DNA of 64,000 bases, taken from positions 20,455,385-20,519,384 of the forward strand of contig NC_089319.1 of the NCBI RefSeq assembly GCF_036669915.1, read 5' to 3'. A program made the position numbers and the translations under genes. The notes beneath the pieces are model-generated. The model had not been told where the DNA came from, ran no database searches, and saw nothing but the letters and a program-made list of their open reading frames with translations. The DNA comes from Pocillopora verrucosa (taxonomy: Eukaryota > Cnidaria > Anthozoa > Scleractinia > Pocilloporidae). Below are positions 10,208 to 56,036 of this stretch, one piece after another; position 1 is the first letter of the stretch, and each line of letters opens with the position of its first letter.

Positions 10208-19954
<9,747 letters not shown>

Positions 19955-25143: not shown

Positions 25144-26626
25144 GGCACGATTCTCTTCAAAACGCTCTGCAATATCGATGTCGCTGTTTGTTTACAGTGA
25201 AAGTGCGTGATCTTGGACCAATACCGCCACATGTAATGATGACTGATTCGATCACTCGTAGGGTTCAGAGGCGATTACACCTTCCAATTTCAGCGTTCGG
25301 TTCGCGCGAACCAAAACATTTTAGCTAACCCTCTATTAGTTGTGGGCAGTCGTTCGTCGTAAGCCACTGCCGGAAATGTAGTAGACCGTAAACATAAATC
25401 GTTGAGACTGTAAATTTACCTCGTAACTTGTGTTAATTAACAGGGATGATAATTGACATTCTGTCAGCACTACCCTCAGGGAATCACGAACAGGCGGTAA
25501 TGGGGCGTGACGGGGGTAAGTTATCTCATCAAAGTTATGATTTAACTTTCGTCCAGAGTATTTGATGGTTACAGAAATTTTGTTGATCAAAACTATTTTG
25601 TCAAAACTTCAACGAAACATTTACTATCAGAGCTCGGTTCCAAACGCTATTTTATCTCCGTCAAAAATGCAGGGGGGGGGAAGAGGGGAAGTAAGGGGTA
25701 AGGGCAAGTAATCTTTGGTCTTTTGTATTTCAGGGTAGTGTGCTTTCCTAGTTTTAATTCACGTCCTTTTCATGTTGCTCGCGAGCAATTTATATTTGAA
25801 TGTTGATGTTCATTTAGTGTACCTAGGAAGGGGTCCATTAGATGAGAAGTGATTTTCAGGCCAAGTTAGATGCTGGAAAGTGTCTACTGCATCTTGGGAG
25901 TATTGTTTATTCACATTTTTAATGATATCAAAGCAGAGATACAGTCCTGCAAAGACTGCATGATTTTCCAGCCTATAAGATTACCAATGTACCAAGCTAA
26001 GAACAAGAGCTTGTGTCCATAGTGATCTTCTGTTTTGCATGGGCTTAAACAATGTGGATTTGTTTGGAAGAAAATGGTTGCCAAGAGATTTAATAAAGTA
26101 ACACTCCTAATAAATGGACTTTGATTTGTTGAATGGATATATCAGTCAACGCCAATTTTTCTTCTCCTATTTTTCTCATGACATACCTGCCTAGCCCAAA
26201 TATCAGCTCTTTTGACAATTTTATTCCCAAGATCTAGGGAGAAATTCACCCTTCAAGTTTCTATACATTTTATTAAACATTAGTAATGGGAACTTGATAT
26301 TATAAATAATCAAGATTAAATGGTCCAGTGGATAAATTTGTCTATTACATCTATTTTGGAATCATTGCTGTTCCTTGTAATCTGATTGGCCCTCACTGGT
26401 GCAATTTGTTCACGAATTGCACCATTTTTACTTTAAATTGCTTCTTTTTCCGAGCCAATGAGAAAGCTTTACTAAAGTACAACAACCAATTGCTTGTTTA
26501 AGGAAACCAATCAAGTTTCTACAAACCAGCTCATTACTGGATCAACAAAACATTTGTACAGACTACAAAAATCCTGTACCTGAGCAACTGAAGTCTGCGA
26601 TTTCAAAATTGATGTAATAAAGTGGT
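25144..26626. other. Upstream region of folate-receptor-like copy 2, no gene seen
   Basis: No supported exon. Contains a G-run (25671-25680) in a purine-rich tract, and a 10-bp inverted repeat TGGTGCAATT / AATTGCACCA near 26396-26426 that may be the edge of another short foldback repeat. Confidence 0.5.
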
Positions 26627-31708: not shown

Positions 31709-34700
31709 ATGGAGGAAGAAGATGTAATGAATACAAGACTTGCAATCAAGGAATCATTGAAGAAACTTGATGAATATACAACTTACCTGAGGTACATTGA
31801 GAAACATAATTACGTCTTAACCCTTTAACTTCCAGATGTGATTAACTTACTACTTCTACCTATAAAATCTGTACATTATCCAGCCACCAGGTGATGAGCA
31901 TACTCAAACTTTTCAGGAAGAAGTTTTTATCTTGATCTAACATCAAATTCTCATAACTTATTTACAGGAATTGTGTGCCAGTTATAAGGGAGAATTAACA
32001 GTCACATCTTGGGAGTTAAAGGGTTCATTAATTTATATCATCAATAGTTATGGAAGAAACATACTAAGCATACACAAACATACTAAGTATACAGGTATGC
32101 AGTGTACTCTTTTTCAGATGGTAACTGCCATTATTCTTTTTTGAATAAACCTTTGTCTCTTTAACTATAGATGACACCCTCTAAGCACTCCCTCTTCTAG
32201 AATTAATTATAGCCCTGATGTACAGGCCTGAAAAATTTTTAGATCAAATAGTTCTTTTTAAATTTGCATTCTGATTTTTAATGTTTTTTTCTTCTCAAAA
32301 TTTATTTAATGTAGATCAAGGCTGACAGATATCAAGTCCACCCGTGAAGGCGTGAATGATAGTATTAGCAAAGCACGTACAGTGGTTAATGAGAGATTTG
32401 AAGAAATCAAGAAGGAAATAGCCCATGTGTTGGAAGCTCGCCAAAGAGGAATTTTAAGTACTATTGCTGAGATTGAAAGGAAGGATCTTGACCCTCTGAC
32501 CACTTTGGAAGACAGAATCAATGGAGATTTAGATAAAACTTTACAGTGTATTGAAAAAGGTAGGAAATTTGCTCATAATTGTGAAGGGCAACAAAGTCAT
32601 GCAGAGATTTCCCCTTTTTTGCTTAAGCTGGGAGATACCATGTCCCTTTAAAAGTTTGTTTTGTTTTGCAGACTGTCAATTTTTTGTTATCCAAGATGAC
32701 TACTTAAATAATAATTTTTCAATGAGCTGTTCAAACAGAAAACTTATTTTTGAATTTGTCATTTCAGCAGGAGGGCATTGACAGCTGCAACTTTAAATAA
32801 ATTATTTGACTGTTCAAATTATTAAACTTTTCCAGTGATAGAGGAGAAATACATCTTTGATGAGTGGAAGATATTTTTCATTCTACCAAAGGTGGCAAAT
32901 TTTTTACCTTTTTTTAATTAATTTTTTTTTTGGGGGGGGGGGGGTTGGGAGGAGGGGGGTAAAATTGTTTGATTGATGGATTCAAGACCATCCCCAGAAT
33001 CCAACAAAAATGAAACCTGTTAAATTTACTTGCTCTGTTGAAAGCAACTATTTGTACATCTATTTGGGTTTTTTCTTTTTTAAATTCTGTATGGTTCTGC
33101 TGTGAACAAGTAAAATGCTCATCTAGAACTTTGCTATATATTCCAGTGGTGAATATTTTCTTCAATCATCATTGTTGTATATGATTTGCTAAGCTTTCAT
33201 TTTTAACACAGGTAATTCTGCTCTTGATGAGGATGATGCCACTCTCCTAAGTGAAGGAAAGAACTTGAATAATGAGCTGCAAATTTCATCTATAAGGTTA
33301 GACTACACATGGTGTTTTCCAATGAATTTGACCAACACTTCTGTGTTCTGCATTAGATGAAGATGATTCAAAGTTGAACTTCCCATAACCAAACACCTAA
33401 TATTTTAAGCCTTCATGGTCAATTGCAAGATATATCGAGAGTTTCTCAGCTTAGTTATCACAGTCTTGTACAAAATTTTGGTAACTCTAGCTGCCTAAAT
33501 AAGGTGGTCACTTGCTACTTGTATGCTAGAAGTTCTGAATTCATTCCTGTGTGTAGAATGGTTCAAAGCTTAGTGGGGTATTTATGGAGGCCTTTTGATA
33601 CTATCAAGGTGAAATGTTGGTAGGGATTAATTGCACTGATTGAGAATCCTCTCCTGGAGTTGTGCTACATGTACATATGTGACAGTCACACTGGCAGGCC
33701 TCATATGCATGAGTTAAGCTTTTTTAACCTCAGTACACTTCTCAGAGTTTTCATTGATAGTTGCCATTTTACCAGAAGTATCCAGATTTTCCTAGTATTA
33801 TTTCCAGCAAAATTTTTCTCCTGACAACTAAAATTTTATCTCCGGTGACATCTTTACTATTTTAAGTTGCCAAATGGCTGCTGTGAAAAAAATTGAGCTT
33901 GAAGCCTTAACCATTTCATAAGAAATTAATTTGAAGGAAATTTATTTACTCATTTCACCCGCAGGTATCCTGACACACCATGTATATCACAAACTCTTTC
34001 TGTAATGTTCAGTGAGAGTCACACCCAGTCAGTTCTAGAGGCTGTCAATTCTCTGGGAGAAATGTCCATGACTGGCACACTTCAAGTAACTGATCTGTCC
34101 GAGCAGCCTGGAGCCATCCTTGTGCAGTGGTATGATGAGGTACAGTAAATATATGTTATCTACCAGGCGAGAGTATTGTATTTGAAATGATTTGGTGTCA
34201 TACCACTGTTCTTTATTTTCAGTTGTCCATCATTGTAAGGGTTGTTAACTGAGCAAGTATTTAACTGATTTTGTCTGTAATCCTGAGAATTTTTTTTCGT
34301 TAACAGACATTTTCAGACAGTGAATCAATCACAGATTACAGTGGAGTTCAAGAATACATGCTACAGTGTTGTCGCACTGACAACAAAGGAAACAGCAACT
34401 CAGTGTTCAGTACAGTATACTGTGGTGAAGAATCATCGCATTTAGTCACAGATCTTGAGCCACATGTGTCATACACTTTCCGTGTCTGTGGAAGGTTTGG
34501 AAATGAGGGGAAATGGGGATCATGGAGTATTCCTAGGAATGGAATAACAACTCTAGACCAACATGGTTAGTGTGAAGACATGAGTGCAGAGATGAATTGT
34601 ACACTAACCTTGCAGGGTCATATATTGATGGATAAGACTCTTTAGCTAAAGTTCCTGTTTCTATTCAGAAGGAAAAATGAGATCCAGTAAACTTTCAGAG

Positions 34701-36679: not shown

Positions 36680-36820
36680 GTGAATATGAAAGCGATTTTC
36701 GTAGTAATGAACACTACTTAAGCAGTAGTGAATCCCGCACAGGCCTGAATTTTTTGCAGGCCTTCTTTTCACTACTGATTAAGTAGTGTTCATTACTGCG
36801 AAGATCGCTTTCATATTCAC
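36680..36820. mobile_element. 141-bp foldback MITE
   Basis: GTGAATATGAAAGCGAT... at 36680 is mirrored by ATCGCTTTCATATTCAC ending at 36820. The arms are about 52 bases and nearly complementary (GTAGTAATGAACACTACTTA with its mirror TAAGTAGTGTTCATTACTG). The loop holds its own small palindrome, AGGCCTGAATTTTTTGCAGG followed by CCT. No reading frame. Confidence 0.88.
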
Positions 36821-37975: not shown

Positions 37976-38426
37976 AAGATCACTCCACCCAACATGATCT
38001 CGAGACCGAAATTACGATTATCGTTATTTCTAAATTGGCACCAAATTTATGGATATAGTAATTTCGTGGCACTCTTTACCAATGCTCTTTACACGTGTTA
38101 AATAAAGAGAAGGACTCGGTTCCACTGTCTTACAACATTCAAGATGGCGGAGGAAAGGGGTAAATGTGCGTTCAGTTGTGATCAGCATGATCTCGACACC
38201 AAAATAACGATTACCGTTATTTCTAAATTGGCCCTGAAATAACGAATATTATAATTTCAGTGCATGTCTGAGACCTTCGGGCTCGAAGCTTGGGAACTAG
38301 TATTCAGGGAAAGATAAAATGGCAGCTTACGGCGGCGAAGGAAATCTCAGTATTTTAATATTTAGCGTGAAAAGGCTTGGGTGTTGTGATCTGGTTCTCA
38401 AGTAAAAAAAAAAATCACGGTCTGCA

Positions 38427-38510
38427 ATGGCCCTATCACCTTTTGAACAACAAGAAAACATTGAAACGGTGGTAAAAAGCAGCAAGTTTCGAAGTCTAAA
38501 CGAAAGATGG
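38427..38510 (+). CDS. Exon-like frame in left arm (28 codons, splice donor)
   Basis: ATG at 38427 reads MALSPFEQQENIETVVKSSK and eight more codons to AGATGG, then GTAAGC, a strong donor. The right arm has the same frame with one base change (Ser4 to Pro). A candidate second exon starts at 38736 after TTTGTTTTAG; read in phase 0 it adds about 19 codons and stops. It points inwards. It could be the first exon of an element gene or of a captured host gene. No family is recognised. Confidence 0.4.
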
Positions 38511-39467
38511 GTAAGCTGAGTTTCAGTCAAATATCATGACATTTGGGATGTAATTTCGATACCGAATAAATAGTTCTACATGGTTACACACGCATAGGAT
38601 TCTGTTGTGTTCACGTGAAGGCCATTTCAGCCATTCCTGCCACTTGTAAGTGGTAGGAAATAAAAGATATGTATAGTTGTTTCGTATTGAAGCCCTGTGA
38701 AATCACAAATTTGATTTATTTCTTCTTTGTTTTAGGTGGTCATTATCCATTACTTTTGGAAGTCGATGCTGATGAGAAAGAAAAAATGTTTATGATTATT
38801 TCTTCTCTCGAACATTTTACTATTTAGGTACCAAATAATCTTGATACTGAAGATCATTGCATCCATTATGAAAAAATTACCCTTGATTGCTTTGTCAACT
38901 GGAATGTATAATGTAATATACCTTGTGATTTGTGGGATTTTCACAAGTAAACTAGAAATACTTGAAGAGGGTAATGATGTACTTAATGCAGAGCATTTGG
39001 TACAAAGTCTGCTTTGCTGTAATCTACCTGAAGGTGCTTTTTATATGCTAGTAAGACTTGCACAGCCCAGTCAAAATGTTTTTGAGTAGTAGAAAAGCTG
39101 GCCAAACCTCTTCCTGAAAAGCAGTCTGAAAAATGTGAAGTTAGCGGAAGGTACTTCATTGTAGGCGGCCAAATTGTAAGCTGCCAACCCATTTTGAGTG
39201 AGCAGTAAAACTCAAGATTGGCTATTTTAGCTAATTTTATTGAGAACCAAATTCCCAGCAACGGGCACAATTTTACTGGGCTATTTGTTATTTAACTACT
39301 TAGTAATATTCTTATTAAAATTTACTGCATTTTTTTCTTATAATTTTCTGTTGATTGTATGCTGTATATAGCTTATGATTTGTGTGATTTTCACAAGTAA
39401 ATTAGAAATACCTGAAGATGGTAATGATGTACTAGATAATGTACTTGATGCAAAGCTATTTTGGTGC

Positions 39468-39737
39468 AAAGTGTGTGCCTTGTCTGTAGGTGATTTTGCA
39501 TGCTAATAAGACTTGTAATTCAAATAATACACATCAGCTGGAGTGGGAATATTAAAAGAAAAATAATAATATTTAGCTATACCAAGTTCTGGTTTTATGT
39601 CCAAAGTGTGTGCCTTGTCCATAGGTGATTTTGCATGCTAATAAGACTTGTAATTCAAATAATACACATCAGCTGGAGTGGGAATATTAAAAGAAAAATA
39701 ATAATATTTAGCTATACCAAGTTCTAGTTTTATGTCC
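39468..39737. repeat. 135-bp tandem duplication, left arm only
   Basis: The block beginning AAAGTGTGTGCCTTGTCTGT occurs twice with period 135 (next copy AAAGTGTGTGCCTTGTCCAT). The right arm (about 49740-49930) has it once, so the duplication arose after the arms separated. Confidence 0.85.
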
Positions 39738-40559
39738 AAATTAAGCACTTAGTTGAAGATCACTGCACTGCTCAGGTCCAGAAGGCTGAAAGAGTACTGT
39801 CTGCTGTTAGTTTGATTTTTGTCATTTCTATTGATTTATTTTATTTATCAATGTTTCTTTGAATTGTAATTCATTGATCTCTTTCAATAGTGCAGGTTCG
39901 CTCATGTAACCTAATCTCCCACTTATGTATGTATGTATGGATGAGCTCAGTCAAAATGTTTTTGAGTGGAAGGCAAGCTGGTGATAGTAATAGGCAGCAG
40001 AGGCTGAACCTTGTCTTGAATGGAAGTGTGAAAAGTGTGAAGTTAGCAGCAGCTATATTGTGGCAGGCAGCCAAATTGTCAGCTGTGGCACATTTTGACT
40101 GGGCTGATTGTGTGTAGTATATATGTGCACTTCTTTTAGGGTGTTAAACAGGTTAAAGTACCAAGAAATCCTCTGTGATAACTTGATAATTCAAGATGTA
40201 AAAATTTTAAATAATAAGGTAAAGCTTGATCATTCTTAAGAGTTTCCATTTGTTCTGGAAATTTGGGGGAGGGTCAGGGGAGCATTATTTATACATAAAT
40301 AATGTACATAAAAAGTAAAAAAAAAGGACCAAGGTAAAATCCCAATTTGTTTTAAGAGTTAATTTTATTAAGAGAAAACCCTGGATATAGCTTGGGATTT
40401 GTGTGATTTTCAAAAATTGTTAAGAACCTTGTTAATTTTCAGCTTCAAGAACACAAGTACATAATCTTTCGTGCAGCCCTCTTTTCTCCCCGCCATTATT
40501 CTAATTTTTTTATCAAGTGTCCTTTTTCTTGTGTTCAATTAATTTATTGTCTTTACAGG

Positions 40560-41100
40560 TGAAATTTTAATATCTGCTAGCACAATTATCTCTGCTAAGA
40601 GTGTCTAACATCACTCTTGCCGGTCTCAAGCCCAAAACGCTGCAAACTAGCTGAAACTACATGTATTTCGTAAAATTGCAATGAAATCTATCTAAAAACA
40701 CCAAAATCCGGCAGAACGCACGAGTTTTTGCCAAATTTTACGCAAAAGTTGACAAAAGCGCTCAATTCGACCCGAAAAACACTTTTTTTTTTTTTTTTGC
40801 AAAAATCAGCCTATTTTACATTCAAAAGCACGATGTCTTTAACAAAATAGGGATACAATCCATGTGAAAACACTTATTCCAGCTAAAACGCAGTGTTCTC
40901 AGTAAAATTTGGGGAAAAAACGCGTAAAAACCGTCAGAAACACGACAAATTGGGCTGATTTTACCCACTTTTTGTGTAAATAGCTGCCAAAACCCTCTAA
41001 ACTAGCTGGAACTACATGTTTTTCACAAGATCGCCATAAAATCTTGAAACGTTGCTTTAGGGACCTTTATGCCTCCAAAACGAGTTTTTACTTTAAAAAA
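40560..41100. repeat. Diverged two-copy repeat inside the foldback element
   Basis: AAACTAGCTGAAACTACATG near 40645 recurs as AAACTAGCTGGAACTACATG near 41000, with similar flanks, period about 355. A third fragment (GCCAAAACACGGCAAACCAG) lies near 46215 across the nested insertion. Non-coding. Confidence 0.6.
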
Positions 41101-41376
41101 AAATGGAATGAACAAAGATGTTAAAGGGGAAAAAGCTGTGAGAAAGGAGAAGTTTAGTGTTGCTGTTTGATATGCCGCCCAGATATATCAATTTATTAAT
41201 TTAACGCCTTTAGCCGTGGGCAGAAGTTTTTCTCTATACTAAGCACAGGACGAAATTGCAAGAATCCGTAAACGGAAACGTGGCGGAAAAATGCAACTCC
41301 ATGTTTCCGTTATGTTTACGTAAAAGTGGTCCGGTTCCGTTGTATACGCAGCAACGGAAACGCGAGAAAACGTCAC

Positions 41377-41520
41377 TGTCATGTATTACTTAAGAACTAC
41401 ACACCCCAAACAACATGGCGGTTCGGTAAGTAAAAGACTGTTTAATGAAGCCTCATGCGTGCGCATGAGCAAACCATATATGGTAACACACAACATACAA
41501 CACACTGGAAAACCATAACA
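41377..41520 (-). repeat. 3' LTR of the Gypsy-type element
   Basis: 144 bp, identical base for base to 45871-46014. Ends are TG...CA. Contains CCATATATGG (41474-41483), which fits a CArG box and is also TATA-like, and the palindrome CATGCGTGCGCATG. A purine-rich tract (minus-strand TGTGGAGGAA, 41521-41530) lies directly inside it and fits the polypurine tract. Confidence 0.95.
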
Positions 41521-41677
41521 TTCCTCCACACATTAAACGATCTGTCCCTAGTTTTCAAAACAAGCCCTAAAATACAATTTCAAGGAAAACATAAAATAAA
41601 CCAACAGTGTCCGGTAACCACAGTTCGAAAGGTAAGAACGACCTTTAAACAAGGAAACGAACAGAATAAAACAAAGT

Positions 41678-44600
41678 TCAGAGATCAAGCCTCTGTGGTG
41701 CCCTGCGAACTCTCTGAGGGTGTTGTCGCATTTTGACCATCGGACTAACTGTAGCTGGTTTAGCATCAGGAGGGTCAGGTACCGTAGGTGTGGAAACAGG
41801 AACCATCTTTGGTTGATCTTTTTTGGAACCTCCTGGAGCTGTGCCGCCCTCAGTGGTTGGAGTACTTGATGTAATTGGGGTCAGTGGTGTGTTGGCCACT
41901 TCAGGTTGGCTGACTTCAACACTACAGTCGGCGTCAGTGCTTTCAACTGTGTGTCCAACTGCCGTTGGTCTCAACTGATCAATATGTCGGCGCCAGATCA
42001 GTCCCGGTGCCACCTGTACCTCATACATCAGCGGACCTGTTTTGTTAACAATCAGCCCTGGACGCCACTTCAGATCCCCTCGATAATCCCGTGACATAAC
42101 TGAGTCACCAATCTCTAACTGGCGATACTGTTTACCCTTGTCAATCGCTGCCTTAATGCTCTGCTGGTGTTGTTGGTTAACCATCTTACGGTTTAAGTTA
42201 GGTTTCACCAAATCTAGGAGAGTACGCAATGGTCTTCCCAGGAGTAACTGTGCTGGGCTCTCACCGGTGGTGGAGTGTGGAGTGTTCCTGTAAGCTATGA
42301 GAAACTTCGCCAACTTCTCCCTCACTGGCTTGGGGCTTTGACGCATGGAACGCAAAGCCTGTTTGAAGGTTTGTACTGTCCTTTCCGCAAGACCATTCGT
42401 CGCTGGATGGTACGGTGCTGAAGTTATATGGCGGATGCCATTGGACTTGACAAATGTCTGGAATTCCTCAGAAACAAACTGTGTACCATTGTCACTGACT
42501 ATCTGTTCTGGAATTCCAAATCTGGCGAACAAATCGCGTAGAATTTCGATAGTCGAACTTGAAGAAGTTGACTTGACTGGAACCACTTCTGGCCACTTGG
42601 TGTGTGCGTCGACAACCACTAAGAACATCGAGTTCTGAAATGGCCCTGCGTAGTCGATGTGTATACGCTGCCATGGTGTAGTGGCCCACTCCCACGGATG
42701 TAGTGGTGTTTTAGCAGGCATCTTCTGGTTTTGCTGACACCCGCTGCAGCCTTTCGCTAGCTCTTCCAGATGACCATTGATATTAGGCCACCATACGTAG
42801 CTCCTCGCGAGTGCTTTCATTTTGACCATGCCCAGATGCCCATCATGAAGTTCCTCTAACACTCTGCTTTGTAACTTATTGGGAACTACCACTCTCATTC
42901 CCCATAGGATGCAGCCTTGGTGAACTGTCAGTTCATTGCGTCGCTCGTAATAAGGCTTGTCTCCCTCCACACGAGTAGACCATCCTTTCACGATAGAATC
43001 ATGTATCCTCGCTAGGACAACGTCACGACGTGTTTCTCTTGCCACTGCTTCACTGGTTATAGGTAATGGCACAAACTGAGAGGCGTGGAACACCTCTGTT
43101 GAATCCACCTCCAAGTCTTCTCGCTCTTTCTGCTGGAGAGGGAGCCGCGACAGTCCATCGGCATTGCAGTGTTTGGTTGTACTCTTATACTCAATGATAT
43201 AGTCGAACCCAGACAAGAACAATGCATATCGCTGAAGCCTTGCAGCAGTCATGGCTGGAACTCCCTTTTCTGGGTGGAAGATGGCAGTGAGGGGCTTGTG
43301 GTCTGTAATGAGCGTAAATCGTCTCCCATAGAGGTAAACATGAAATCGTTTCACCCCCCACACAATGGACAATGCCTCCTTGTCTATCTGTGCATACCGT
43401 CGTTCAGTCTTGGTCAACGATCGGGACGCAAAAGCTACCGGCCTTTCGCTACCATCGGACATGACGTGTGAAAGAACCGCGCCGATGCCAGTTGGTGAAG
43501 CATCACATGCCAGCCTAACCGGTAATGCTGGGTCATAGTGCGTTAGCACCTGCTCAGATGTAATCATACGCTTAGCCTCAGTGAACGCTCGCTCGCACCG
43601 TTCAGTCCACTGCCATTGGTTGTTTTGCTCTAACAACTGGTGAAGTGGGTGGAGAACTGTAGACGCATTGGGCAAGAAACGGTTGTAATAGTTTACGAGC
43701 CCTAAAAATGAGCGAAGCTGTGACACATTCTCAGGTCTTGGTGCACTGACCACTGCTTCAATCTTCTCTTGTGTCTTGTGTAGACCTTCCTTATCGATCT
43801 CATGCCCACAAAACTGAACTCTATCTTTGAAGAACTCGCACTTCTCCTTGTTAGCCTTCAGACCCGCATCTTGTAATCGCTTGAGTACACTCTCCAGGTT
43901 CTCCAAATGTTCTTCATCGGTTTTGCCTGTGACAATCATGTCATCAAGGATGCACTGGGTCCCAGGTATTCCCTGTAATACCTGGTCTATAGCACGCTGC
44001 CAAATGGCTGGAGACGAAGAGATGCCAAAGACTAAGCGATTGTATCGAAAAAGGCCCTTGTGTGTATTAATCGTAAGGAGTTCCTTGGATCTTTCGGTTA
44101 CTTCCATCTGGTGATAAGCTTGGCGAAGGTCAAGCTTGCTGAAATGTCTACCGCCAGCCAAATTTGCAAAAATATCCTCTATACGTGGCAGAGGGTACTG
44201 TTCTGCAAGAAGTACTGGGTTCACTGAGACCTTAAAATCGCCACAAACTCGTACCGATCCGTTTCGCTTGACTACCGGGACAATTGGGGTCGCCCATTCA
44301 CTGTATTCTACTTTAGAGAGAATACCTTCCTTCTCTAAGCGTGTCAATTCTGCTTCTACTTTGGGGCGGAGTGCGTATGGCACTTGGCGTGGTTTATGAA
44401 AGCTGGACTGGCAGCCTTCCTCGACCTTCAAATCCGCCTTGTAGCCTTTAAGTGTGCCCAGATTTTCGGAGAATACAGACTCGTACTTCTGTAGTAGCTG
44501 ATCCACTTTGCGTGCCATACCCCCTTCTGAAGTCTTGCTAAGCTTAAAGGTTTTGATTTCACCCCAGTTCAGTTGAATGTTGGACAGCCAGTCACGCCCA

Positions 44601-45781
44601 AACAGTGCTGGTCCCTGCGTCTCAACAACTTGTAGGTTTAACTCTTTTTCCTGGCCCTTGAACTTAACATTACATCTCATCTCTCCCTTAGGTGTGATTT
44701 TCTGCCCAGTGTATGTCTTAAGTGTCACAAGGCTCTTTGAAAGTTTGACATGATTAAAATGTTCCTTATATTGTTTGTATGGAAGTACAGACACCGCTGA
44801 CCCTGTGTCTAGTTCCATCTTGACCACCTTTCCCTGTATTTCGGGGTTGACCCATATTACGTGATCCTTGTCACCCACATTATTAACCTCAAGGGATGCC
44901 AAATAATCATCGCTGTCCCCGTCATCGCTGTCTACATAATTTACTGGGGGTTGGGAAACTTGTGTCTCTTTTTTCTTTGATTTACAAGCCCTCACAATGT
45001 GACCAGTCTTGTTACAGTGGTGGCATTTTTCTTTCTTGAATGGACAACTTTTGTGATCATGAATTCCCAAACAGCGGTAGCAACTTTGATCACCCGTTCT
45101 CTTGGGGGAAAAAGAACCCTTTTTCTCTGAAAGCTTGGCTTCTCTCTTGAATTTAAGCTTCTTGCCTGGCTTTGATTTGGCTAATAGACCGATTGATTCT
45201 GACGCTTTATTCCCCTGGAGAGCTTCAACATCCTTGTAAGATTGCTCAATAGCTAAGCACTTTGCAACAGCAATGTCAAATGTTAGTTCCTCAAGCTTAA
45301 GTTTCAAAAGCTCTGACATCATTCTCTTATCTCGAATACCCGAAACCAGTCTATCTCTAAGCCTTTCCAAACGCATGGCGTCGTTAAATTTGCAATCCAT
45401 AGCTAGATGTTTCAAAACAGCAACATATTGACTCACCGTTTCTCCTGCGTTACGTGCTCGGTTGTCAAACTCATACCTGGCTACTAAAGCAGACTTCTGT
45501 GGCTTCAATTGTTCGCGGAGACGCTCTACGATTGCGTTGTACGTGAGAGAATCTTCTCCTAACAAGGTCGGAGCCATCAAATCTTTCGCCAGTTGGTACG
45601 TTTCAGTGGGAAGATTGGTTAACAGGATGGCTTTCTTCTGTTTCGCGTCGGTCACTCCATTGGCCACGAAGAAGAATCCTAACTGTTCTGTATACGCCTC
45701 GAAGTCAGTTCCCACAGTGAACTTTTGAACTTTTCCGATGTTACGAACTGGATTTGGTGCCGTATTTGCATCGCTGGCCAT
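41678..45781 (-). CDS. Gag-Pol polyprotein of the Gypsy-type element
   Basis: One uninterrupted frame of 1367 codons from the ATG at 45781. Residues 1 to about 200 are Gag-like. Two Cys/His knuckles follow: C234/C237/H243/C246 (irregular spacing) and C253/C256/H261/C266 (CX2CX4HX4C). Protease has LDTGS with the catalytic Asp at 325. Reverse transcriptase (about 470-660) has KLDLRQAYHQ (Asp551) and LDDM (Asp613, Asp614). RNase H has ACDASP (Asp760). Integrase has an H/C zinc region (about 979-1015: H979, H982, C1012, C1015) and the DDE triad Asp1043, Asp1097, Glu1133 (IDYAGPF, SDNGTQF, NGLAERT). Gag and Pol are fused without a frameshift, and there is no envelope frame. All key residues I can check are present, so it may still be competent. 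Confidence 0.97.
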   Translation of the reverse strand: MASDANTAPNPVRNIGKVQKFTVGTDFEAYTEQLGFFFVANGVTDAKQKKAILLTNLPTETYQLAKDLMAPTLLGEDSLTYNAIVERLREQLKPQKSALVARYEFDNRARNAGETVSQYVAVLKHLAMDCKFNDAMRLERLRDRLVSGIRDKRMMSELLKLKLEELTFDIAVAKCLAIEQSYKDVEALQGNKASESIGLLAKSKPGKKLKFKREAKLSEKKGSFSPKRTGDQSCYRCLGIHDHKSCPFKKEKCHHCNKTGHIVRACKSKKKETQVSQPPVNYVDSDDGDSDDYLASLEVNNVGDKDHVIWVNPEIQGKVVKMELDTGSAVSVLPYKQYKEHFNHVKLSKSLVTLKTYTGQKITPKGEMRCNVKFKGQEKELNLQVVETQGPALFGRDWLSNIQLNWGEIKTFKLSKTSEGGMARKVDQLLQKYESVFSENLGTLKGYKADLKVEEGCQSSFHKPRQVPYALRPKVEAELTRLEKEGILSKVEYSEWATPIVPVVKRNGSVRVCGDFKVSVNPVLLAEQYPLPRIEDIFANLAGGRHFSKLDLRQAYHQMEVTERSKELLTINTHKGLFRYNRLVFGISSSPAIWQRAIDQVLQGIPGTQCILDDMIVTGKTDEEHLENLESVLKRLQDAGLKANKEKCEFFKDRVQFCGHEIDKEGLHKTQEKIEAVVSAPRPENVSQLRSFLGLVNYYNRFLPNASTVLHPLHQLLEQNNQWQWTERCERAFTEAKRMITSEQVLTHYDPALPVRLACDASPTGIGAVLSHVMSDGSERPVAFASRSLTKTERRYAQIDKEALSIVWGVKRFHVYLYGRRFTLITDHKPLTAIFHPEKGVPAMTAARLQRYALFLSGFDYIIEYKSTTKHCNADGLSRLPLQQKEREDLEVDSTEVFHASQFVPLPITSEAVARETRRDVVLARIHDSIVKGWSTRVEGDKPYYERRNELTVHQGCILWGMRVVVPNKLQSRVLEELHDGHLGMVKMKALARSYVWWPNINGHLEELAKGCSGCQQNQKMPAKTPLHPWEWATTPWQRIHIDYAGPFQNSMFLVVVDAHTKWPEVVPVKSTSSSSTIEILRDLFARFGIPEQIVSDNGTQFVSEEFQTFVKSNGIRHITSAPYHPATNGLAERTVQTFKQALRSMRQSPKPVREKLAKFLIAYRNTPHSTTGESPAQLLLGRPLRTLLDLVKPNLNRKMVNQQHQQSIKAAIDKGKQYRQLEIGDSVMSRDYRGDLKWRPGLIVNKTGPLMYEVQVAPGLIWRRHIDQLRPTAVGHTVESTDADCSVEVSQPEVANTPLTPITSSTPTTEGGTAPGGSKKDQPKMVPVSTPTVPDPPDAKPATVSPMVKMRQHPQRVRRAPQRLDL

Positions 45782-45852
45782 CGTGGACGTTATGTGGATT
45801 TAGTTTAGGGATGTCTTCACTTTTAGCAGCCAAAAAGGTCCCTTAATATCCC

Positions 45853-45870
45853 AATCCTCGTCGCCAAAAT
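45853..45870 (-). promoter_or_regulatory. Primer-binding-site-like sequence
   Basis: Directly inside the 5' LTR the minus strand reads TTTTGGCGACGAGGATTGGG. Position and TGGCGACGAGG text are as seen at primer-binding sites of metazoan Gypsy-type elements. I cannot say which tRNA primes. Confidence 0.6.
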
Positions 45871-46014
45871 TGTCATGTATTACTTAAGAACTACACACCC
45901 CAAACAACATGGCGGTTCGGTAAGTAAAAGACTGTTTAATGAAGCCTCATGCGTGCGCATGAGCAAACCATATATGGTAACACACAACATACAACACACT
46001 GGAAAACCATAACA
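45871..46014 (-). repeat. 5' LTR of the Gypsy-type element
   Basis: 144 bp, identical to the other LTR at 41377-41520. It is short for a Gypsy-type LTR. It should carry the promoter for the minus-strand element; the CCATATATGG box lies at 45968-45977. Confidence 0.95.
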
Positions 46015-46689
46015 GTCACGAAACCGGTAACGGAAACACAGGTTATCCGTCGTGTTTCCGGAACGGTTTAACACGTTTCTGCCACGTTTCCGTTTACGGA
46101 TTCTTTCAATTTCGTCCTGTGAAGAGGACCCTCCCTATGTTGACGAACCTCAATAACTCGTTGATTTTACTGTTTTTACACAGATTTGATTTTAACCATA
46201 TTCGCCAAAATAACTGCCAAAACACGGCAAACCAGTATCTCGGCCAAGAGCGATATTGGCCATTTCACACATCCTTATTAGATATGAATTTTATTAAAGA
46301 TTGTCATTCTAGCATATGTTGGCTAGTCACCACAGGTTTCTTGATTTTCATGGGAAAGTGGCATTGGTTGGTACCATGACCAATCTCCTCGACTTTCCCA
46401 TGATTTTCATAGGATGTTAGCGACCCATACTTCGAACCTCAGTTGTTTTTTTTTTTTTACATTGGCACGAGTTTCACAACTTTCTTGTGGTTTGGCATTG
46501 ACTCAGAGTTGGGCTTATTTTTATGGCTAATCCATCGGCGACTTTCTCATGATTTTCTTGGGTTCTCAACAGTGACACGCACTTTGGAACCATAATTTTA
46601 TAAATATGTCAACACTGGCAAATACTGCTAAAATCTACACTCTACTAAACTCCATGTACCACAATATCCACACAACTGCGTGTGCCTAC

Positions 46690-47850
46690 TTGAAAATCCT
46701 AACCCTAACCCTAAAACTATCCAGTTAGCCTAGTATTGTATTGCTGGTTTGAGTGACTAAACTGGCTCAAATGATCCAGCTGCTTAAAAATCTAAGCACA
46801 GAGTAAGTTTAAAAGATTCAATTTTGTAAGGTTTCGAAACAGTTCCAAAATTAACATGCACATAGCTCAGTGTAAAACATCGAAGCTTCTAGGACTTCTT
46901 ATGATTCCTACGAACGTACACACCTAATGCACGTCAATTTGCCTTTTTTGTCCTCGAACGATCACGTCTTCATGGTAACGTGGTGTAAGAACTGTACAGC
47001 ACTTTATAAATATATGTTTTACTTGACGGTAAAAGTTTGAATCCGTACAAGGAAACGTAACGGAAACAGGCGATGATAATATTCCGTTGACAGAAATGCA
47101 ACGGAAACGTGTCGTCATATTTCCGTTCAGGAATCATAACGGAAACATAACAGGTCCAAGGAAGAAGTGAATGATGTGGAAACATAGAGTTTCATTTTTC
47201 CGAATTACGGAATCATGCTATTTCGTCCTGTGCTCACTCTAACTCTGTGCTATCCTAAACCTAACCCAAACCCCAAACCAATCCTAAGCTATGGTAAAGG
47301 GTTTAAGTCAGGGTTGAGGATAGGGTTAGGGCAGGAGCCCATTACCTGGTTAGGGTTAGAGTTTGGGTTGCTTCGGTTCAGAGGGGTTTAGTGTTACAAT
47401 CAGGGTTAGGGCTAGGGTAAAATTATGCTTAGAGTTAGCGGGGTTTAGTGTTAGAATTAGGGTTAAGGCTAGGATGAGGCTATGCTTAGGGTTGGCGTTA
47501 ATATGTTTCTACAAGCATTCAATTGCAGGGTTTTTGGTATTGTGTTTGTAAATTTCAGTAACTACTTGAAAGTTTACTGAAAAACAAACTATAGGCCGAC
47601 TGGTACACTTACAGGATAGATAGAGAAGGTTGGGGTTAGGGTTAGGGTTAGGATTAGGTCTAGGTTAAGGGCTATAGGTTAGGGTTTAGGGTTTAGGGTT
47701 AGGGTTTAGGGTTATGTTGTGGGGCTAAGGTTAGGGTTAGGGTTTAGGCTTAGTGTTAGGGTTAGAGGGTCTGCGGTTGAGGTTAGGGCTAGGGTGAAGG
47801 TTTGGGGTTAGGGTTTGGGGGTAGGGTTAGTGTTTAGGGTAAGGGTGTAA
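46690..47850. repeat. Degenerate telomere-like (TTAGGG) arrays
   Basis: CCTAACCCTAACCCTAAAAC appears near 46698. Between about 47230 and 47850 runs of GGTTAGGGTTAGGG alternate with GGTTTAGGGTTTAGGG variants and unrelated DNA. The words are imperfect, as in interstitial telomeric or derived satellite sequence. The block lies near the middle of the foldback element. No reading frame is credible here. Confidence 0.85.
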
Positions 47851-47889
47851 GCCTCTTCAAAAATATTTTTAAGAAGATTTTGTCACCTT

Positions 47890-48335
47890 TTTCACTTAAA
47901 TAACCACCTCAAGAATTTTGACCAGTTAGATTATTTGAAGCGGTTGGATTAATTTTGATTGGGGTTTAATAACTTTTAGTAGTTGGATGATTATTTTTAC
48001 CAGTTGAACCACTGTAATATGCTGGATCTTTTTAACTAATGTTACCATCCTTACCTGAATTATTTGAACCAATTTCACTGGTTACACATGCATTATCCAG
48101 TTAGACCATTTCAACTGGTTGGATTATTTAAACCAGTTTGTCCATTTTAGATATTAGCATCATTTTATCAAGTTGGATCATGTTAACCAGTCGCACCATT
48201 TTACTAAGTGAGATCGTTTCTTCCGATTGGACCATGTCACGTATTTAAAATCTTTTCACCGTTTAAACCATTTTATCTTGTTTTGGCTGGTTGGACCATG
48301 TTAACCAGTTGCATCATTTTGACTGGAGTGAAAAG
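47890..48335. repeat. Degenerate minisatellite, ACCAGTTGGACCATTTTA-like
   Basis: Words such as CCAGTTAGATTATTT, CCAGTTGAACCACT, CAGTTGGATCATGTTAACC and GGTTGGACCATGTTAACC recur about 18-20 times with unit lengths near 17 or 34 bases. Copies are diverged, and the array lies between two telomere-like blocks. Confidence 0.75.
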
Positions 48336-48339
48336 TTCC

Positions 48340-48425
48340 GTTCTTAACCCGAGCCCTAACCCTAACCCGGGGTTAGGGTTAGGGTTAGGATAGCTCGCAG
48401 CTAGAGTTAGGGCTTGGGTAGGGTG
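48340..48425. repeat. Palindromic telomere-like junction (CCCTAA to TTAGGG)
   Basis: GAGCCCTAACCCTAACCC is followed at once by GGGGTTAGGGTTAGGGTTAG. On the plus strand the C-rich repeats come first and the G-rich second, so the two arrays diverge from a centre at about 48369. That is the reverse of a chromosome end-fusion signature. Confidence 0.85.
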
Positions 48426-49029
48426 AGATTATGATTTCTTTTTTTTTTTGTCCTTACTCATGAAGTTGATTTTGGCATTTCAAACAAAAACTCTGCTAGA
48501 GCATTAATTGAATGACATATCATGCACTTACTTTGAAGCAAGAACACTTTTTTTTTAATTCAGAAAAATACCTTTTTATTTTTTTTTTAAGGACTGCTGG
48601 ATATAACCTGTACAACCAAGATGAATTTACATTCATTATTTGTCATAACTTACACTAAATTAGAAATTCAAGTATGAAATGAGGGTACTAGCCCTTTAAT
48701 AGTGTTCAAAATTTCCATATGCAGGGGTACTTGTGGCTACTGGAGAAGAATCAGTCTTTAACCCTTCACCCCCCCCCCCCAAGGGAGATAATAAGTACAG
48801 ATATCCTCTTCCCTAGGGGCAACTAGCTCAAAAGTGAGTGATCTCAAGGGCCCTCCAAAAACGTTTTCTACAGCAATAACTAAGCTCTACAGAAGCACAC
48901 TATGCAGACAAAAGGTGTAGGAGAATCAATGAATTCTTTAATTCTTGGTCCCTCCCAGGCCAACCTATTGTACAAATCTCATGACATCTGTTCCAGTTTC
49001 ATCAGTCAATTTTTCAAGCTTCAAGCTTT

Positions 49030-51626
49030 TCCTGCAATTATGTACTTGTTCTTGAAGCTGAAAACTAACAAGGTTCCTGTAAATTAAGTTTACATAACAA
49101 CCTAACAATTTGTGAAAATCACACAAATCCCAAGCTATATCCAGAATTATGCTCTTAATAAAATAAACTTTTAAAGCAAATTGGGATTTTGCCCTAGTTC
49201 TTTTTATTTTTTTGTTACTTTTTAAATACATTTGTATAAATAATGCTCTCCTAACTCTCCCCAAAACTTTTAGAACAGATGCAAACTCTTAAGAATGATC
49301 AAGCTTTACCTTATTATTAAAAATTTTTACATCTTAGACTACCAAGTTATCACAGAGGTTTTTTTCGGTACTTTGACCTGTTTAACACCTAAAAAGAAGA
49401 ACACATACATAACACACACACAATCAGCCAGGTCAAAATGTGCTGCAGCCAACAATTTGGCCACCTACAATGAAATAGCTGCCAATTTCACACATGTCAG
49501 ACTTCTATTCAGGACAAGATTTGGCCTCTGCTACCTATTACTATTGCCAGCTTGCCTGCCACTCAAAATTTCAACTGAGATTGTACATACATACATGTGG
49601 GATTAGGTTACACGAGCGAACATGCACTATTGAAAGAGGTCAATGAATTATAACTCAAAGAAACATTGATAAATAAAATAAATCAATAGAAATGACAAAA
49701 ATTAAACTAACAGCAGACAGCTCTTTTTTGGCCTTCGGGGCCTGATCAGTGCAGTGATCTTCAACTAAGTGCTTAATTTGGACATAAAACCAAAACTTGT
49801 TATGGTTAAATATTATTATTTTTCTTTCAATATTCCCATTCCAGCTGATGTATATTATTTGAATAACAAATCTTATTAGCATGTTAAAATCACCTGAGGA
49901 CAAGGCATACACTTTGTGCCAAAATTGCTTTGCATCAAGTACGTTATCTAGTACATCATTACCATCTTCAGGTATTTCTAATTTACTCTTGAAAATCACA
50001 CAAATCATAAGCTATATACAGCATACAATTGGCAGCAAATTATTAAAAAGGAATGCAGTAATCTTTGATAATAAGAGTAGCTAAATAACAAATAGCCTAG
50101 TCAAAATGTGCCGGTAACCAGGGATTTGGCTTTCCACACAGAACATTTGTTAGGCGTCTAGTCTGGACAAGGTTTGGTCTCTACCTTCTGTTACTATAGC
50201 CAGCTTGCCTACTTCTAAAAAACGTTTTGACTAAGCTGAAAAAAATGTTTGAGAGAAAAATGGCCACAACAAGCCCACTTACTGCAAAATAAGAAACATA
50301 AAAGTAACACTTCAAATTAATACAGAATATAAGCCTTGCAGGATTTGGCTCTCAATAAAATTAGTTAAAATAGCCGATCTTGAGTTTAACTACTCACTCA
50401 AAATGGGCCGACAGCCTGCAATTTGGCCACCTACAATGAAGTATCTTCCACTGACTTTACACCTTTCAGACTGCTTTTCAGGATGAGGTTTGGCCTCTGC
50501 TGCCTATAATTACAACAGCCAGCTTGACTACTACTAAAGAACATTTTGACTGGGCTGTGCAAGTGTTACTAGCATATAAAAAGCACCTTCAGGTAGATTA
50601 CAGCAAAGCAGACTTTGTACCAAAACACTTTGCATTAAGTACATCATTACCCTCTACAGGTATTTCTAGTTTACATGTGAAAATCCCACAAATCTCAAGG
50701 TATATTACATCATACATGTTGACAAAGCAATCAGGGGTACATTTTTCATAATAGGATGCAATGGTCTTCAGTATCAAGATTATTTGGTACCTAAATAGTA
50801 AAATGTTCGAGAGAAGAAATAATCATAAACATTTTTTCTTTCTCATCAGCATCGACTTCCAAAAGTAATGGATAATGACCACCTAAAACAAAGAAGAAAT
50901 AAATCAAATTTTTGATTTCACAGGGCTTCGATACGAAACAACTATACATATCTTTTATTTCCTACCACTTACAAGTGGCAGGAATGGCTGAAATGGCCTT
51001 CACGTGAACACAACAGAATCCTATGCGTGTATAACCATGTAGAACTATTTATTCGGTATCGAAATTACATCCCAAATGTCATGATATTTGACTGAAACTC
51101 AGCTTACCCATCTTTCGTTTAGACTTCGAAACTTGCTGCTTTTTACCACCGTTTCAATGTTTTCTTGTTGTTCAAAAGGTGGTAGGGCCATTGCAGACCG
51201 TGATTTTTTTTTTACTTGAGAACCAGATCACAACACCCAAGCCTTTTCACGCTAAATATTAAACTACTGAGATTTCCTTCGCCGCCGTAAGCCGCCATTT
51301 TATCTTTCCCTGAATACTAGTTCCCAAGCTTCGAGCCCGAAGGTCTCAGACATGCACTGAAATTATGATATTCGTTATTTCAGGGCCAATTTAGAAATAA
51401 CGATAATCGTTATTTTGGTGTCGAGATCATGCGATCACAACTGAACGCACATTTACCCCTTTCCTCCGCCATCTTGAATGTTGTAAGACAGTGGAACCGA
51501 GTCCTTCTCTTTATTTAACACGTGTAAAGAGCATTGGTAAAGAGTGCCACGAAATTACTATATCCATAAATTTGGTGCCAATTTAGAAATAACGATAATC
51601 GTAATTTCGGTCTCGAGATCATGTTG
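49030..51626 (-). repeat. Right terminal inverted repeat of the foldback element
   Basis: Reverse complement of 37990-40465. The first shared inner sequence is near GTACTTGTTCTTGAAGCTGA (about 49040). It ends GATCATGTTG at 51626, next to the CTCCACC target duplication. Carries the mirrored exon-like frame at 51108-51191. Confidence 0.9.
51108..51191 (-). CDS. Exon-like frame in right arm (28 codons, splice donor)
   Basis: Minus-strand ATG at 51191 reads MALPPFEQQENIETVVKSSK and on to AGATGG|GTAAGC, ending at 51108. It differs from the left-arm copy at one base of 84. The following acceptor-like site and short second exon are also conserved. It points inwards, as in the left arm. Confidence 0.4.
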
Positions 51627-51809
51627 CTCCACCACAACGGGTGGTGTCCAGCTCACGCTCATGCAGCTTCTTAGATGGAGCCTGCAGTCATTGATGCACG
51701 GGAGAGGAGGTACTGAAATGTCATGCGCTGCCTTCTACTAAAGAAGAAGAAACACAAATTCTAAACTGTTGCTTACAACGTTTTCTAAGACCATTTGTGA
51801 TCGAAAGAG

Positions 51810-54800: not shown

Positions 54801-56036
54801 GCAGACACACTCTACAATTTTGCACCTACTGTCATGGTAATTGATCCAATGAACTAAATCTCCATTCCTTTGATGCACCGTGATCTGTGTGATCTTGGAT
54901 CACAAATCCTAATCCAGATCCTCCCAAAGGAAGGCACCCTGAGACAAGCCTGTTACTCTCTATAGAAACTGAGCACATCAAAACCATATTAACCCTTTAC
55001 ACCCTAACATCATAATGCATATTCTCCATACTGTTCTCTATACATTACCTAGGTTCTAACAAGGAGAATTTGTAAAGCCATCAAGAGCTTTGTTAGTTCC
55101 TGATCATTTCGTTTATTCTTATGACTAAAATGTTTGATTCAAGGGTGATATTGTAAGGGGAAACTAGAACCTTGTTACTCTTAGAGATTAAGGGTGAAGA
55201 TACATGTACAACATGAAGAAGCAAAATTTTTGCAGAAACATATCACTATACTTAAGTTTTAATGTGGTGCTTGTGTTAACCATTGGACCCCAAAGAGTGA
55301 TTAATATCCTGTTTCTCCTCACAATATCACCCCTGAATCATACATTGAGGTTATGAGAATAAAGGAAATGATCACCAACTAAAGAAGCTCTTGATTAACA
55401 AACAAATTATCCGCGTTGGCACCTTAGGAAATTTGTAGATAACAGTATGGAAAATATGCATGCCGATGATAAAGTATGAAGGGTTAAATGGAAGTATTTA
55501 TACAGCTATTTCAATTTACGTTGTCAGATCAAAGCTTCAAGGGTACGGGACAAGACCGAAAGGCGGTATGGGTAGATTAGAATTAATTTTAGGCTTTCGG
55601 GGTTGTCGGCGCGAGATGGACATGGAGGCTGAAAATAGAATTAGTATTGCCTTGCGCGTCTTAACAAAGAGCAGATTAAGATCCCATATTCCCCTTCGGT
55701 CTTGTCTTGTAGCCTTGAGGCTTTGATCCGACAACGTAAATTGAAATAGCTGTATATACATGATTGAAAGTACAGTAGAGTTGATGTGGTGGTGATAGAA
55801 CTTAAAATATTGTTAAAATGTTGTAAAGATTCTCTGGATGCTTTCCGTGGTGATTATGTTGCGCACTCTACAAACATTGTAGACTTTTTAATCTGTTTGC
55901 ACATGACTTTAAATAGCAAACCAAACCTTTGGTCAGTGTCGAGATCTATAATGTTATGAATTGTTCCAATAAACATTTCTTTCAGGGCAAGATTGTGGAG
56001 TGTGTTATATGTGGATGTCGTGGTTGTTCTGGTTGA
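51810..56036 (+). CDS. BUD31: BUD31 homologue (G10 protein), spliceosome component, complete
   Basis: Five coding exons: 51810-51903, 52020-52077, 53022-53086, 53316-53482 and 55986-56036. Phases 1, 2, 1, 0 match and give exactly 144 aa, the length of human BUD31. Recognisable blocks: [18 protein letters not shown] in exon 1, [11 protein letters not shown] in exon 2, [12 protein letters not shown] over exons 3-4, [20 protein letters not shown] in exon 4, then the Cys-rich zinc region ([20 protein letters not shown]) and the last exon [19 protein letters not shown]31 is a core component of the activated spliceosome, found in the nucleus. Its start codon lies 184 bases after the end of the foldback element, so that element must sit in or next to its promoter or leader. 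Introns 2 and 4 hold several short repeats; intron 4 (2.5 kb) is built largely of them. Confidence 0.98.
52783..52978. repeat. CCCTTTAACTCCC family MITE (BUD31 intron 2)
   Basis: Starts TTAACCTCTTAACTCCCATG and ends GATCTTGGGAGTAGAAGGGT, imperfect inverted repeats. Ends 43 bases before exon 3. Confidence 0.72.
53690..53765. repeat. tRNA-B-box-like and AGGCCT palindrome remnant
   Basis: GAGGCCTGAAAAAAATTTAG then GCCT forms a small palindrome, followed by GAATTTGAACCCATAACCC, the reverse complement of a Pol III B-box-like word. The palindrome is nearly the same as the core of the foldback at 36680-36820. A SINE or MITE fragment in BUD31 intron 4. Confidence 0.45.
54067..54939. mobile_element. 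About 870-bp element with TIRs GGGTGCGTTCCTTTGGGA
   Basis: GGGTGCGTTCCTTTGGGAGA then ATCTGCATCAGGATTT at 54067 is mirrored at 54939 (reverse complement GGGTGCCTTCCTTTGGGAGG then ATCTGGATTAGGATTT). TIRs extend about 40 bases and more weakly further in, with many GGATCA/TGATCC words. A minus-strand frame (54808-54572, about 78 codons, [29 protein letters not shown]) lies inside and could be a transposase N-terminal fragment, PIF/Harbinger-like at best. No target duplication is evident. Confidence 0.65.
54990..55195. repeat. MITE of the CCCTTTAACTCCC subfamily (BUD31 intron 4)
   Basis: Starts TTAACCCTTTACACCCTAAC and ends TTACTCTTAGAGATTAAGGG. Shares CATATTCTCCATACTGTTCT and TTGATTCAAGGGTGATATTG with the 28760 copy. 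Confidence 0.65.
55276..55488. repeat. MITE of the CCCTTTAACTCCC subfamily, reverse orientation
   Basis: Starts GTTAACCATTGGACCCCAAA and ends GATAAAGTATGAAGGGTTAA. The interior (CAATATCACCCCTGAATCAT, AATGATCACCAACTAAAGAA) is the reverse complement of text in the 54990 copy, so the two sit in opposite orientation 80 bases apart. Confidence 0.65.
55497..55760. mobile_element. 264-bp foldback MITE in BUD31 intron 4
   Basis: TATACAGCTATTTCAATTTA then CGTTGTC at the left is mirrored by GACAACGTAAATTGAAATAG then CTGTATA at the right. Arms extend about 65 bases further with modest divergence (CAAAGCTTCAAGGGTACGGG against the reversed right arm). No target duplication was resolved. No frame of note. 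Confidence 0.85.

What the first reader, a model, noticed from the sequence alone, without database searches (positions are those of the whole stretch)
37983..51633. A 13.6-kb foldback transposon with about 2.5-kb terminal inverted repeats and a 7-bp target duplication
The arms start CAACATGATCTCGAG and mirror each other for about 2.5 kb. CTCCACC directly flanks both ends. Together this shows a single insertion event and not a chance palindrome. The termini, the 7-bp duplication and the very long arms do not fit a family I recognise, and no transposase other than the nested retrotransposon's integrase was seen. This could be a non-autonomous member of an undescribed giant element family.
Basis: partly seen in the sequence, partly recalled or inferred. 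Interest (0 to 1): 0.88.

Follow-up and report, generated by a model that had tools for sequence, protein, structure and literature searches.

The report
Nine-kilobase non-coding foldback jumping gene
This is a recently active jumping gene with two long mirror-image arms and no recognisable gene of its own; the genome also keeps scars where members of its family appear to have jumped out again, which hint at how it is cut and moved.

Summary
The element spans 37990-51626, is flanked by CTCCACC, and has arms that pair over about 2.4 kb. The 13.6 kb include a 4.64-kb nested LTR retrotransposon, so the element itself is 9.0 kb. It is not an artefact: at least 10 more full-length copies (pairwise 98.2-99.9%, 55 pairs) lie elsewhere in the genome, each with its own duplication, 8 bp in 8 of 10 and 7 bp in 2. 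No recognisable transposase was found in the frames scanned.

Three further results. (1) Relatives about 95% identical lack the outer 192-193 bp and end at the inner copy of a 50-bp terminal repeat. (2) The outer 800 bp of the two arms match at 97.5-100%, then identity drops to 93-95%: an arm-to-arm copying event before the burst. (3) Five loci keep only 24-59 bp, both termini fused between an 8-bp duplication (exact in 4, one mismatch in 1): excision scars; the shortest has the layout of a Drosophila P-element footprint.

Best reading: a non-autonomous foldback moved in trans by a P-type transposase, analogous to Galileo. No transposase with these termini was found, so P membership is unproven. 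New member of a known kind.

The parts
37983..37989 (.). left target-site duplication CTCCACC
51627..51633 (.). right target-site duplication CTCCACC
37990..51626 (.). foldback element including the nested retrotransposon (13637 bp; 8994 bp without it and its duplicated 5 bp)
37990..40422 (+). left arm; 93.6% to the right arm over the first 1.26 kb, 85-87% further in
49103..51626 (-). right arm
37990..38039 (+). outer 50-bp terminal repeat, left (CAACATGATCTCGAGACC...)
38183..38232 (+). inner 50-bp terminal repeat, left (CAGCATGATCTCGACACC...); the position of the terminus in the short-form relatives
51577..51626 (-). outer 50-bp terminal repeat, right
51385..51434 (-). inner 50-bp terminal repeat, right (two mismatches at its tip)
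37990..38182 (+). outer cap (193 bp), absent from the short-form relatives L022 and L023
51435..51626 (-). outer cap, right side (192 bp)
40423..49102 (.). interior between the arms (contains the nested retrotransposon); no coding match outside it, TTAGGG-like stretches at about 47230-47850 and 48350-48395
41377..46014 (-). nested LTR retrotransposon, minus strand (144-bp identical LTRs; RT, RNase H and integrase domains); not part of the foldback element
41372..41376 (.). GTCAC, 5-bp duplication of the nested retrotransposon (second copy 46015-46019)

Best explanation
The element is a non-autonomous cut-and-paste DNA transposon of foldback form. A transposase made elsewhere, most likely of P type (as for Drosophila Galileo and P), would recognise the terminal 50-bp repeats, cut so that about 17 nt of each end stay behind as 3' tails, and insert the element with an 8-bp (less often 7-bp) target duplication. 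SHOWN: the termini, the duplications, an empty target sequence, at least 11 near-identical full-length copies, five loci with both ends fused inside a target duplication, and a sharp edge of arm-to-arm homogenisation at about 800 bp. INFERRED: that the five loci are excision scars; the P-type transposase; that donor breaks are closed by microhomology end joining or aborted gap repair; and that one arm gained the 192-193-bp cap, which gap repair or hairpin copying spread to the other arm before the burst. My estimate is 0.93 for a trans-mobilised cut-and-paste foldback and 0.55 for the transposase being of P type.
For: Ends and duplication. The 24 matches that cover all 300 terminal bases (54 candidates, 40 scored) are 22 ends of 11 paired copies plus one end each of rearranged L019 and L020. 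Duplications in the 10 other paired copies: 8 bp in 8, 7 bp in 2. Mean pairwise identity 99.07% over 55 pairs. Longest frame in the 11 copies, retrotransposon left out, 174 aa; no Pfam match at E 1 for 26 of 28 frames of at least 60 aa of this copy (the other 2 not scanned) nor for a 174-aa and a 136-aa frame of two other copies. Scars: L049, L050, L056 and L057 have exact 8-bp duplications around fused ends, L053 has 7 of 8; 5 of 5 look-alike strings read as a control (L061-L065) had none. The L050 junction uses at most 16 nt of each end, inside the 17-nt tails documented for P-element excision (PMC2895639 Table 1). Arms: within-copy difference 0.76% over 1-790 but 6.23% over 830-1100, while the same arm differs between copies by 0.85-0.87% in both stretches. 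P transposase domains exist in this genome, and one P element there (L041) has CA termini and a 7-bp duplication. Galileo duplications in D. willistoni are 7 or 8 bp.
Against: No transposase gene was found with these termini. The nearest of 7 P-domain matches is 1.78 Mb from any of 56 terminus positions; in the seven P loci read, the best match to the first 30 bases of either end is 19 of 30. The two P elements whose ends could be read (L041, L042) start CATAGTTAG, not CAACATG. Four of five scars keep more than 17 nt of at least one end (L056 23, L053 29, L057 38, L049 41 and 29 nt), so simple joining of 17-nt tails does not explain them and fill-in or gap repair must be assumed. Mutator-assigned foldbacks such as Tetris also have 8-10-bp duplications and no transposase. 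In this family 8 bp prevails over 7 bp, the reverse of Galileo.
Confidence: 0.58

Rival explanations
1. A Mutator/Foldback-type (MULE) non-autonomous element, like Tetris: a MULE transposase moves it, 8-bp duplications are within the range given for Tetris, and the scars are extreme internal deletions from interrupted gap repair.
For: Most foldbacks seem to be Mutator according to the Tetris paper's discussion (PMC4079207, passages), and Tetris has 8-10-bp duplications and no transposase. The genome has 46 MULE-domain matches. Four of five scars look like internal deletions rather than joined 17-nt tails.
Against: The nearest MULE match is 26 kb from any of 56 terminus positions. Duplications are 7-8 bp, never 9 or more, in 13 of 13 measured insertions (11 long-form, 2 short-form). 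The 24-bp scar is best explained by short 3' tails.
Confidence: 0.2
2. Another 8-bp-duplication superfamily (hAT, Merlin, KDZ/Zisupton; duplication lengths recalled) supplies the transposase.
For: 8-bp duplications fit. hAT (78) and KDZ (17, of which 16 over the cut-off) matches exist. One KDZ match (C5:98879) lies 5.5 kb from a terminus-like string at C5:93356.
Against: The C5 string matches for about 18 bp only and lacks the rest of the 50-bp repeat (L058), so it is probably chance. The nearest listed hAT match is 90 kb away (150 of 153 candidates scored). The termini do not fit the hAT YARNG or Merlin GG ends, and 8-bp sites such as AACAGCGA lack the hAT nTnnnnAn pattern (family motifs recalled). 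Merlin-type genes were not searched for genome-wide.
Confidence: 0.18
3. An assembly artefact or chance palindrome.
For: None found; long palindromes are a known assembly hazard (recalled).
Against: 11 paired copies on 8 contigs, each with its own matching 7-8-bp duplication, and an empty version of one target sequence.
Confidence: 0.01
4. The short scars are not excision products but fossils of tiny insertions of another family sharing the ends.
For: L053 has the CGACACC form of the terminus, and two elements with unrelated sequence inside share only the first 83 or 60 bp (L044, L045).
Against: A 24-bp insertion cannot hold two separate 50-bp terminal repeats. In 4 of 5, junctions show 1-11 nt shared by both ends.
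Confidence: 0.08

Closest known systems
Galileo (P superfamily foldback, Drosophila)
   Same: Long internally repetitive arms (PMC3573991, abstract and passages); 7- or 8-bp duplications (PMC4168063, passages); many gene-less copies; arms vary by tandem repeats and exchange, with subfamilies.
   Different: Galileo arms in D. mojavensis reach about 1.26 kb against about 2.4 kb here; Galileo mostly 7 bp, here mostly 8 bp; transposase-coding Galileo segments are known, none here. Terminal sequences were not compared.
Drosophila P element / zebrafish Pdre2 (P superfamily)
   Same: Ends start CA; 8-bp duplication; excision leaves the duplication plus up to 17 nt of each end, often joined at microhomology (PMC2895639 Table 1, passages), the layout of scar L050.
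   Different: Short TIRs (13 bp in Pdre2) and a transposase gene; here 2.4-kb arms and none. Four of five scars here keep more than 17 nt of an end.
Tetris (foldback assigned to Mutator, Drosophila virilis)
   Same: Foldback form, no transposase found, modular arms, 8-9-bp duplications in complete copies (PMC4079207, passages).
   Different: Only three structurally complete copies there and duplications running to 9-10 bp; here 11 complete copies and never above 8 bp in 13 insertions.

Membership tests
Foldback (long-TIR) DNA transposon, structural class | long inverted repeats making up much of the element, flanked by a target duplication | tested here: met
   arms about 2.4 kb each of a 9.0-kb element; 11 copies with duplications
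P superfamily | P-type transposase (TNP RNase H) in the element or in an element with the same ends | tested here: not met
   no such domain in 26 of 28 frames of this copy scanned; 6 P loci in the genome, none within 1.7 Mb of the 56 terminus positions used; two with readable ends differ. P loci L041 and L042 hold masked stretches
P superfamily | 7-8-bp target duplication and CA termini | tested here: met
   13 of 13 measured insertions have 7 or 8 bp; ends begin CA in the 11 long-form copies; short-form L023 has one CG end
P superfamily | excision leaving up to 17 nt of each terminus | tested here: inconclusive
   1 of 5 scars fits directly (L050); the other 4 keep 23-41 nt on at least one side
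Galileo | Galileo transposase or similarity of the terminal 40 bp to Galileo | not tested
   no Galileo sequence was fetched or compared
Mutator / MULE | MULE transposase with the same ends; duplications of mostly 8-11 bp (range recalled) | tested here: not met
   46 MULE matches, nearest 26 kb from a terminus; duplications 7-8 bp only
hAT | hAT transposase with the same ends; YARNG termini; nTnnnnAn 8-bp target (motifs recalled) | tested here: not met
   78 hAT matches listed, nearest 90 kb from a terminus; CAACA termini do not fit
KDZ / Zisupton | KDZ transposase with the same ends | tested here: inconclusive
   one KDZ match 5.5 kb from an 18-bp terminus-like string; the far end could not be fetched

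The most novel reading that the evidence does not exclude
Old termini stay inside as second-line ends.
Probability: 0.3. Interest if true: 0.6.

Novelty: new member of a known kind. Interest (0 to 1): 0.45.

Why it matters
How transposons come by kilobase-long inverted arms, and how both arms stay matched at the tips, is an open question for foldback elements. Here one burst of near-identical copies seems to preserve the step: a sharp edge between homogenised tips and diverged inner arms, plus relatives without the outer cap. The in-genome scars let the cutting be read from sequence alone, a possible way to assign gene-less transposons to a superfamily.

Tried and rejected
Coding interior: in the 11 copies, retrotransposon left out, no frame exceeds 174 aa. 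Of 28 frames of at least 60 aa in this copy, 26 were scanned and none matched Pfam at E 1, nor did the 174-aa frame of L009 and a 136-aa frame of L020. A ninth frame scanned lies mostly in the left flank and gave only a sub-threshold match (E 0.14). The frames tested in L045 (169 and 108 aa) and L044 (104 aa) gave no match. Exon-like frames in L048, 6.5 kb or more from the L044 terminus, looked KDZ-like to me by eye, but Pfam and NCBIfam gave only sub-threshold matches to unrelated families and no KDZ match was listed there: dropped. The 12.3-kb short-form copy (L025, L031, L026) carries an insertion with a weak ISXO2-like match, E 0.0047, below the cut-off; the insertion has its own inverted ends, so I take it as a nested (Merlin-type) element, not the family's transposase. 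The target duplication of that copy was not established.

Empty site of the window copy: joined flanks match only the two flanks themselves, so no paralogous empty site was found. Strings such as CAACATGATTAATCATGTTG (three loci), one at C4:25152165 and one at C11:15132694 looked like scars but lack duplications; the other non-scar strings were not read. Literature: foldback with coral terms, foldback with cnidarian terms, P superfamily with Nematostella and Hydra, and Galileo with Hydra gave no title or abstract start describing such an element (listings only; none of those papers was opened); subscription papers and Repbase were not searchable.
Full report
WHAT IS THERE. A 13,637-bp segment at 37990-51626 is bounded by CTCCACC on both sides. 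Its two ends are inverted copies: 93.6% identical over the first 1.26 kb, 87% and 85% over the next stretches, to about 2.4 kb. Inside lies a 4.64-kb LTR retrotransposon (41377-46014) with identical 144-bp LTRs and a GTCAC duplication. Its one long frame on the minus strand has RT, RNase H and integrase domains. Without it the element is 8994 bp. Of 28 other frames of at least 60 aa, 26 were scanned and none matches Pfam at E 1.

IT IS A FAMILY. The first 300 bp have 24 matches over their full length in the own genome (54 candidates, 40 scored, so a lower bound). These are both ends of 11 copies (the window's and L009-L018) plus one end each of two rearranged copies, L019 and L020. The 11 copies are 98.2-99.9% identical (55 pairs, mean 99.07%). 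Variable columns occur in each 500-column bin of the alignment (2.4-7.0%), with no frame above 174 aa. Each of the 10 others has its own duplication: GTAAGCAT, AACAGCGA, AACCTGCA, ATGGAATC, AAAATTTA, GAGAAGTC, GAAAGTCG and TTTAAAGC (8 bp), AACGAAA and TAAAATC (7 bp). So the ends are real, the burst looks recent, and the window's 7-bp duplication is the minority form (3 of 11).

NESTED ENDS. A 50-bp repeat sits at each tip and again 192-193 bp further in. Two relatives about 95% identical, L022 and L023, start at the position of the inner repeat and have 8-bp duplications there (AATTTAAT, AAAAAGAT). The outer 192-193 bp are therefore an added cap, or were lost in those relatives. Two other loci (L044, L045) share only the first 83 or 60 bp, part of the cap, and no other substantial stretch (L045 also has short TTAGGG-like matches); their far ends were not reached. 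L019 has its terminal 61 bp doubled, so tips do duplicate.

ARM-TO-ARM COPYING. In the 11 copies the arms agree at 97.5-100% in each 200-base bin of the first 800 bp, then at 92.9-95.4%, then at 89.5-92.5% and mostly lower further in (some inner bins are misaligned by indels, e.g. in L012). Over 1-790 the two arms of one copy differ by 0.76%, about as much as the same arm in different copies (0.86-0.87%). Over 830-1100 the arms differ by 6.23%, while the same arm in different copies still differs by only 0.85-0.87%. The simplest account is one conversion of the outer 800 bp, cap included, in the ancestor of the burst. Three of 47 variable sites (columns 23, 94 and 107) are changed in both arms of only one or two copies, which suggests that copying went on later; recurrent mutation is not excluded.

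SCARS AND EMPTY SITES. A scan for the terminus (up to 2 mismatches) gave 98 hits, against 18 for the reversed control. Reading 12 unpaired loci showed five with only fused ends. L050 (24 bp, TATGAGTG both sides), L056 (36 bp, GGTGGATG), L057 (45 bp, AATGTTCT) and L049 (59 bp, TGGGATTT) have exact 8-bp duplications; L053 (36 bp, GTTATCTC/GTTATTTC) has one mismatch. A fused-end scan gave 7 rows, against 0 for its control; a looser one gave 40 rows, against 12 for its control. Five look-alike loci from the looser scan were read and none has a duplication; the remaining non-scar strings were not read. L013 (full element), L056 (scar) and the left flank of L019 contain the same sequence, and L019 shows it without either insertion and with the target once. 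That is an empty site. The window copy itself has no paralogous empty site.

HOW IT WORKS. Drosophila P transposase leaves 17-nt 3' tails, and repaired breaks often carry the 8-bp duplication plus parts of both tails joined at microhomology (PMC2895639, passages and Table 1; the staggered cut is also stated in PMC10983969, a preprint, passages). L050 is such a product in layout, at most 16 nt from each end with an overlap of 8. L056, L053, L057 and L049 keep up to 23, 29, 38 and 41 nt of one end. These need partial resynthesis, for instance aborted gap repair. Hence P-type cutting is the best reading but not proven.

THE MISSING ENZYME. P-type RNase H domains occur at 6 loci (7 rows) and the GTP-binding domain in 4 rows. 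Five of the 6 loci were read with about 5 kb on each side (L041 and L042 include masked stretches of 2503 and 2031 bases), the sixth with 1.5 kb. None shows these termini: the best match to the first 30 bases of either end is 19 of 30, and the two with readable inverted ends start CATAGTTAG. I compared coordinates of P (7), MULE (46), hAT (78) and KDZ (17) matches with 56 terminus positions, taken mainly and partly and leaving out most two-mismatch hits and inner repeats. The nearest distances are 1.78 Mb, 26 kb, 90 kb and 5.5 kb. The KDZ case rests on an 18-bp match only (L058). The autonomous partner is absent from this assembly, has diverged ends, or escaped the searches, which score only the best candidates.

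COMPARISON. Galileo is a foldback with a P transposase, 7- or 8-bp duplications (PMC4168063, passages), arms up to about 1.26 kb in D. mojavensis and frequent arm rearrangement (PMC3573991, abstract and passages). Tetris is a gene-less foldback placed with Mutator by its 8-10-bp duplications (PMC4079207, passages). The present family seems to work like Galileo. It is not filed as a member, because the transposase criterion was tested and not met and Galileo termini were not compared.

VERDICT. I found no description of the family in four listings. It is a new member of a known kind, with arms longer than those reported for Galileo, an added cap and a readable record of likely excision. The host organism was not identified here.

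Noticed in passing
window 47230-47850 and 48350-48395: Degenerate telomere-like GGTTAG/TTAGGG stretches inside the element; the 11 copies hold 15-26 TTAGGG on one strand and 4-5 on the other.
   Followed up: partly
window 54984-55491 and 36680-36820: Two further imperfect palindromes (72% over 518 columns; 84% over 146 columns) outside the element.
   Followed up: no
window 14344-14549, 15674-15873, 31817-32021: A dispersed repeat of about 200 bp, three copies 77-80% alike, the middle one inverted relative to the other two.
   Followed up: no
window 21249-21857 (+) and 24526-25188 (-): Two frames with folate-receptor family matches (E 6e-18 and 1.1e-19), facing each other.
   Followed up: no
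L031:6469-7896: Nested insertion with 33-bp inverted ends (97%) and a weak, sub-threshold ISXO2-like transposase match, perhaps a Merlin-type element.
   Followed up: partly
L041:2709-6089: P element of this genome with 33-bp inverted ends CATAGTTAGTAGAGGGG and a 7-bp duplication ATGAAAC, around a P-type RNase H domain with two stops.
   Followed up: partly
L020 and L024 (G000:C4:27690500-27708999): A copy whose left part runs into an inverted arm: reference 3791-2432 and 1575-939 reversed, then 524-9463 forward with a gap, a head-to-head rearrangement.
   Followed up: partly
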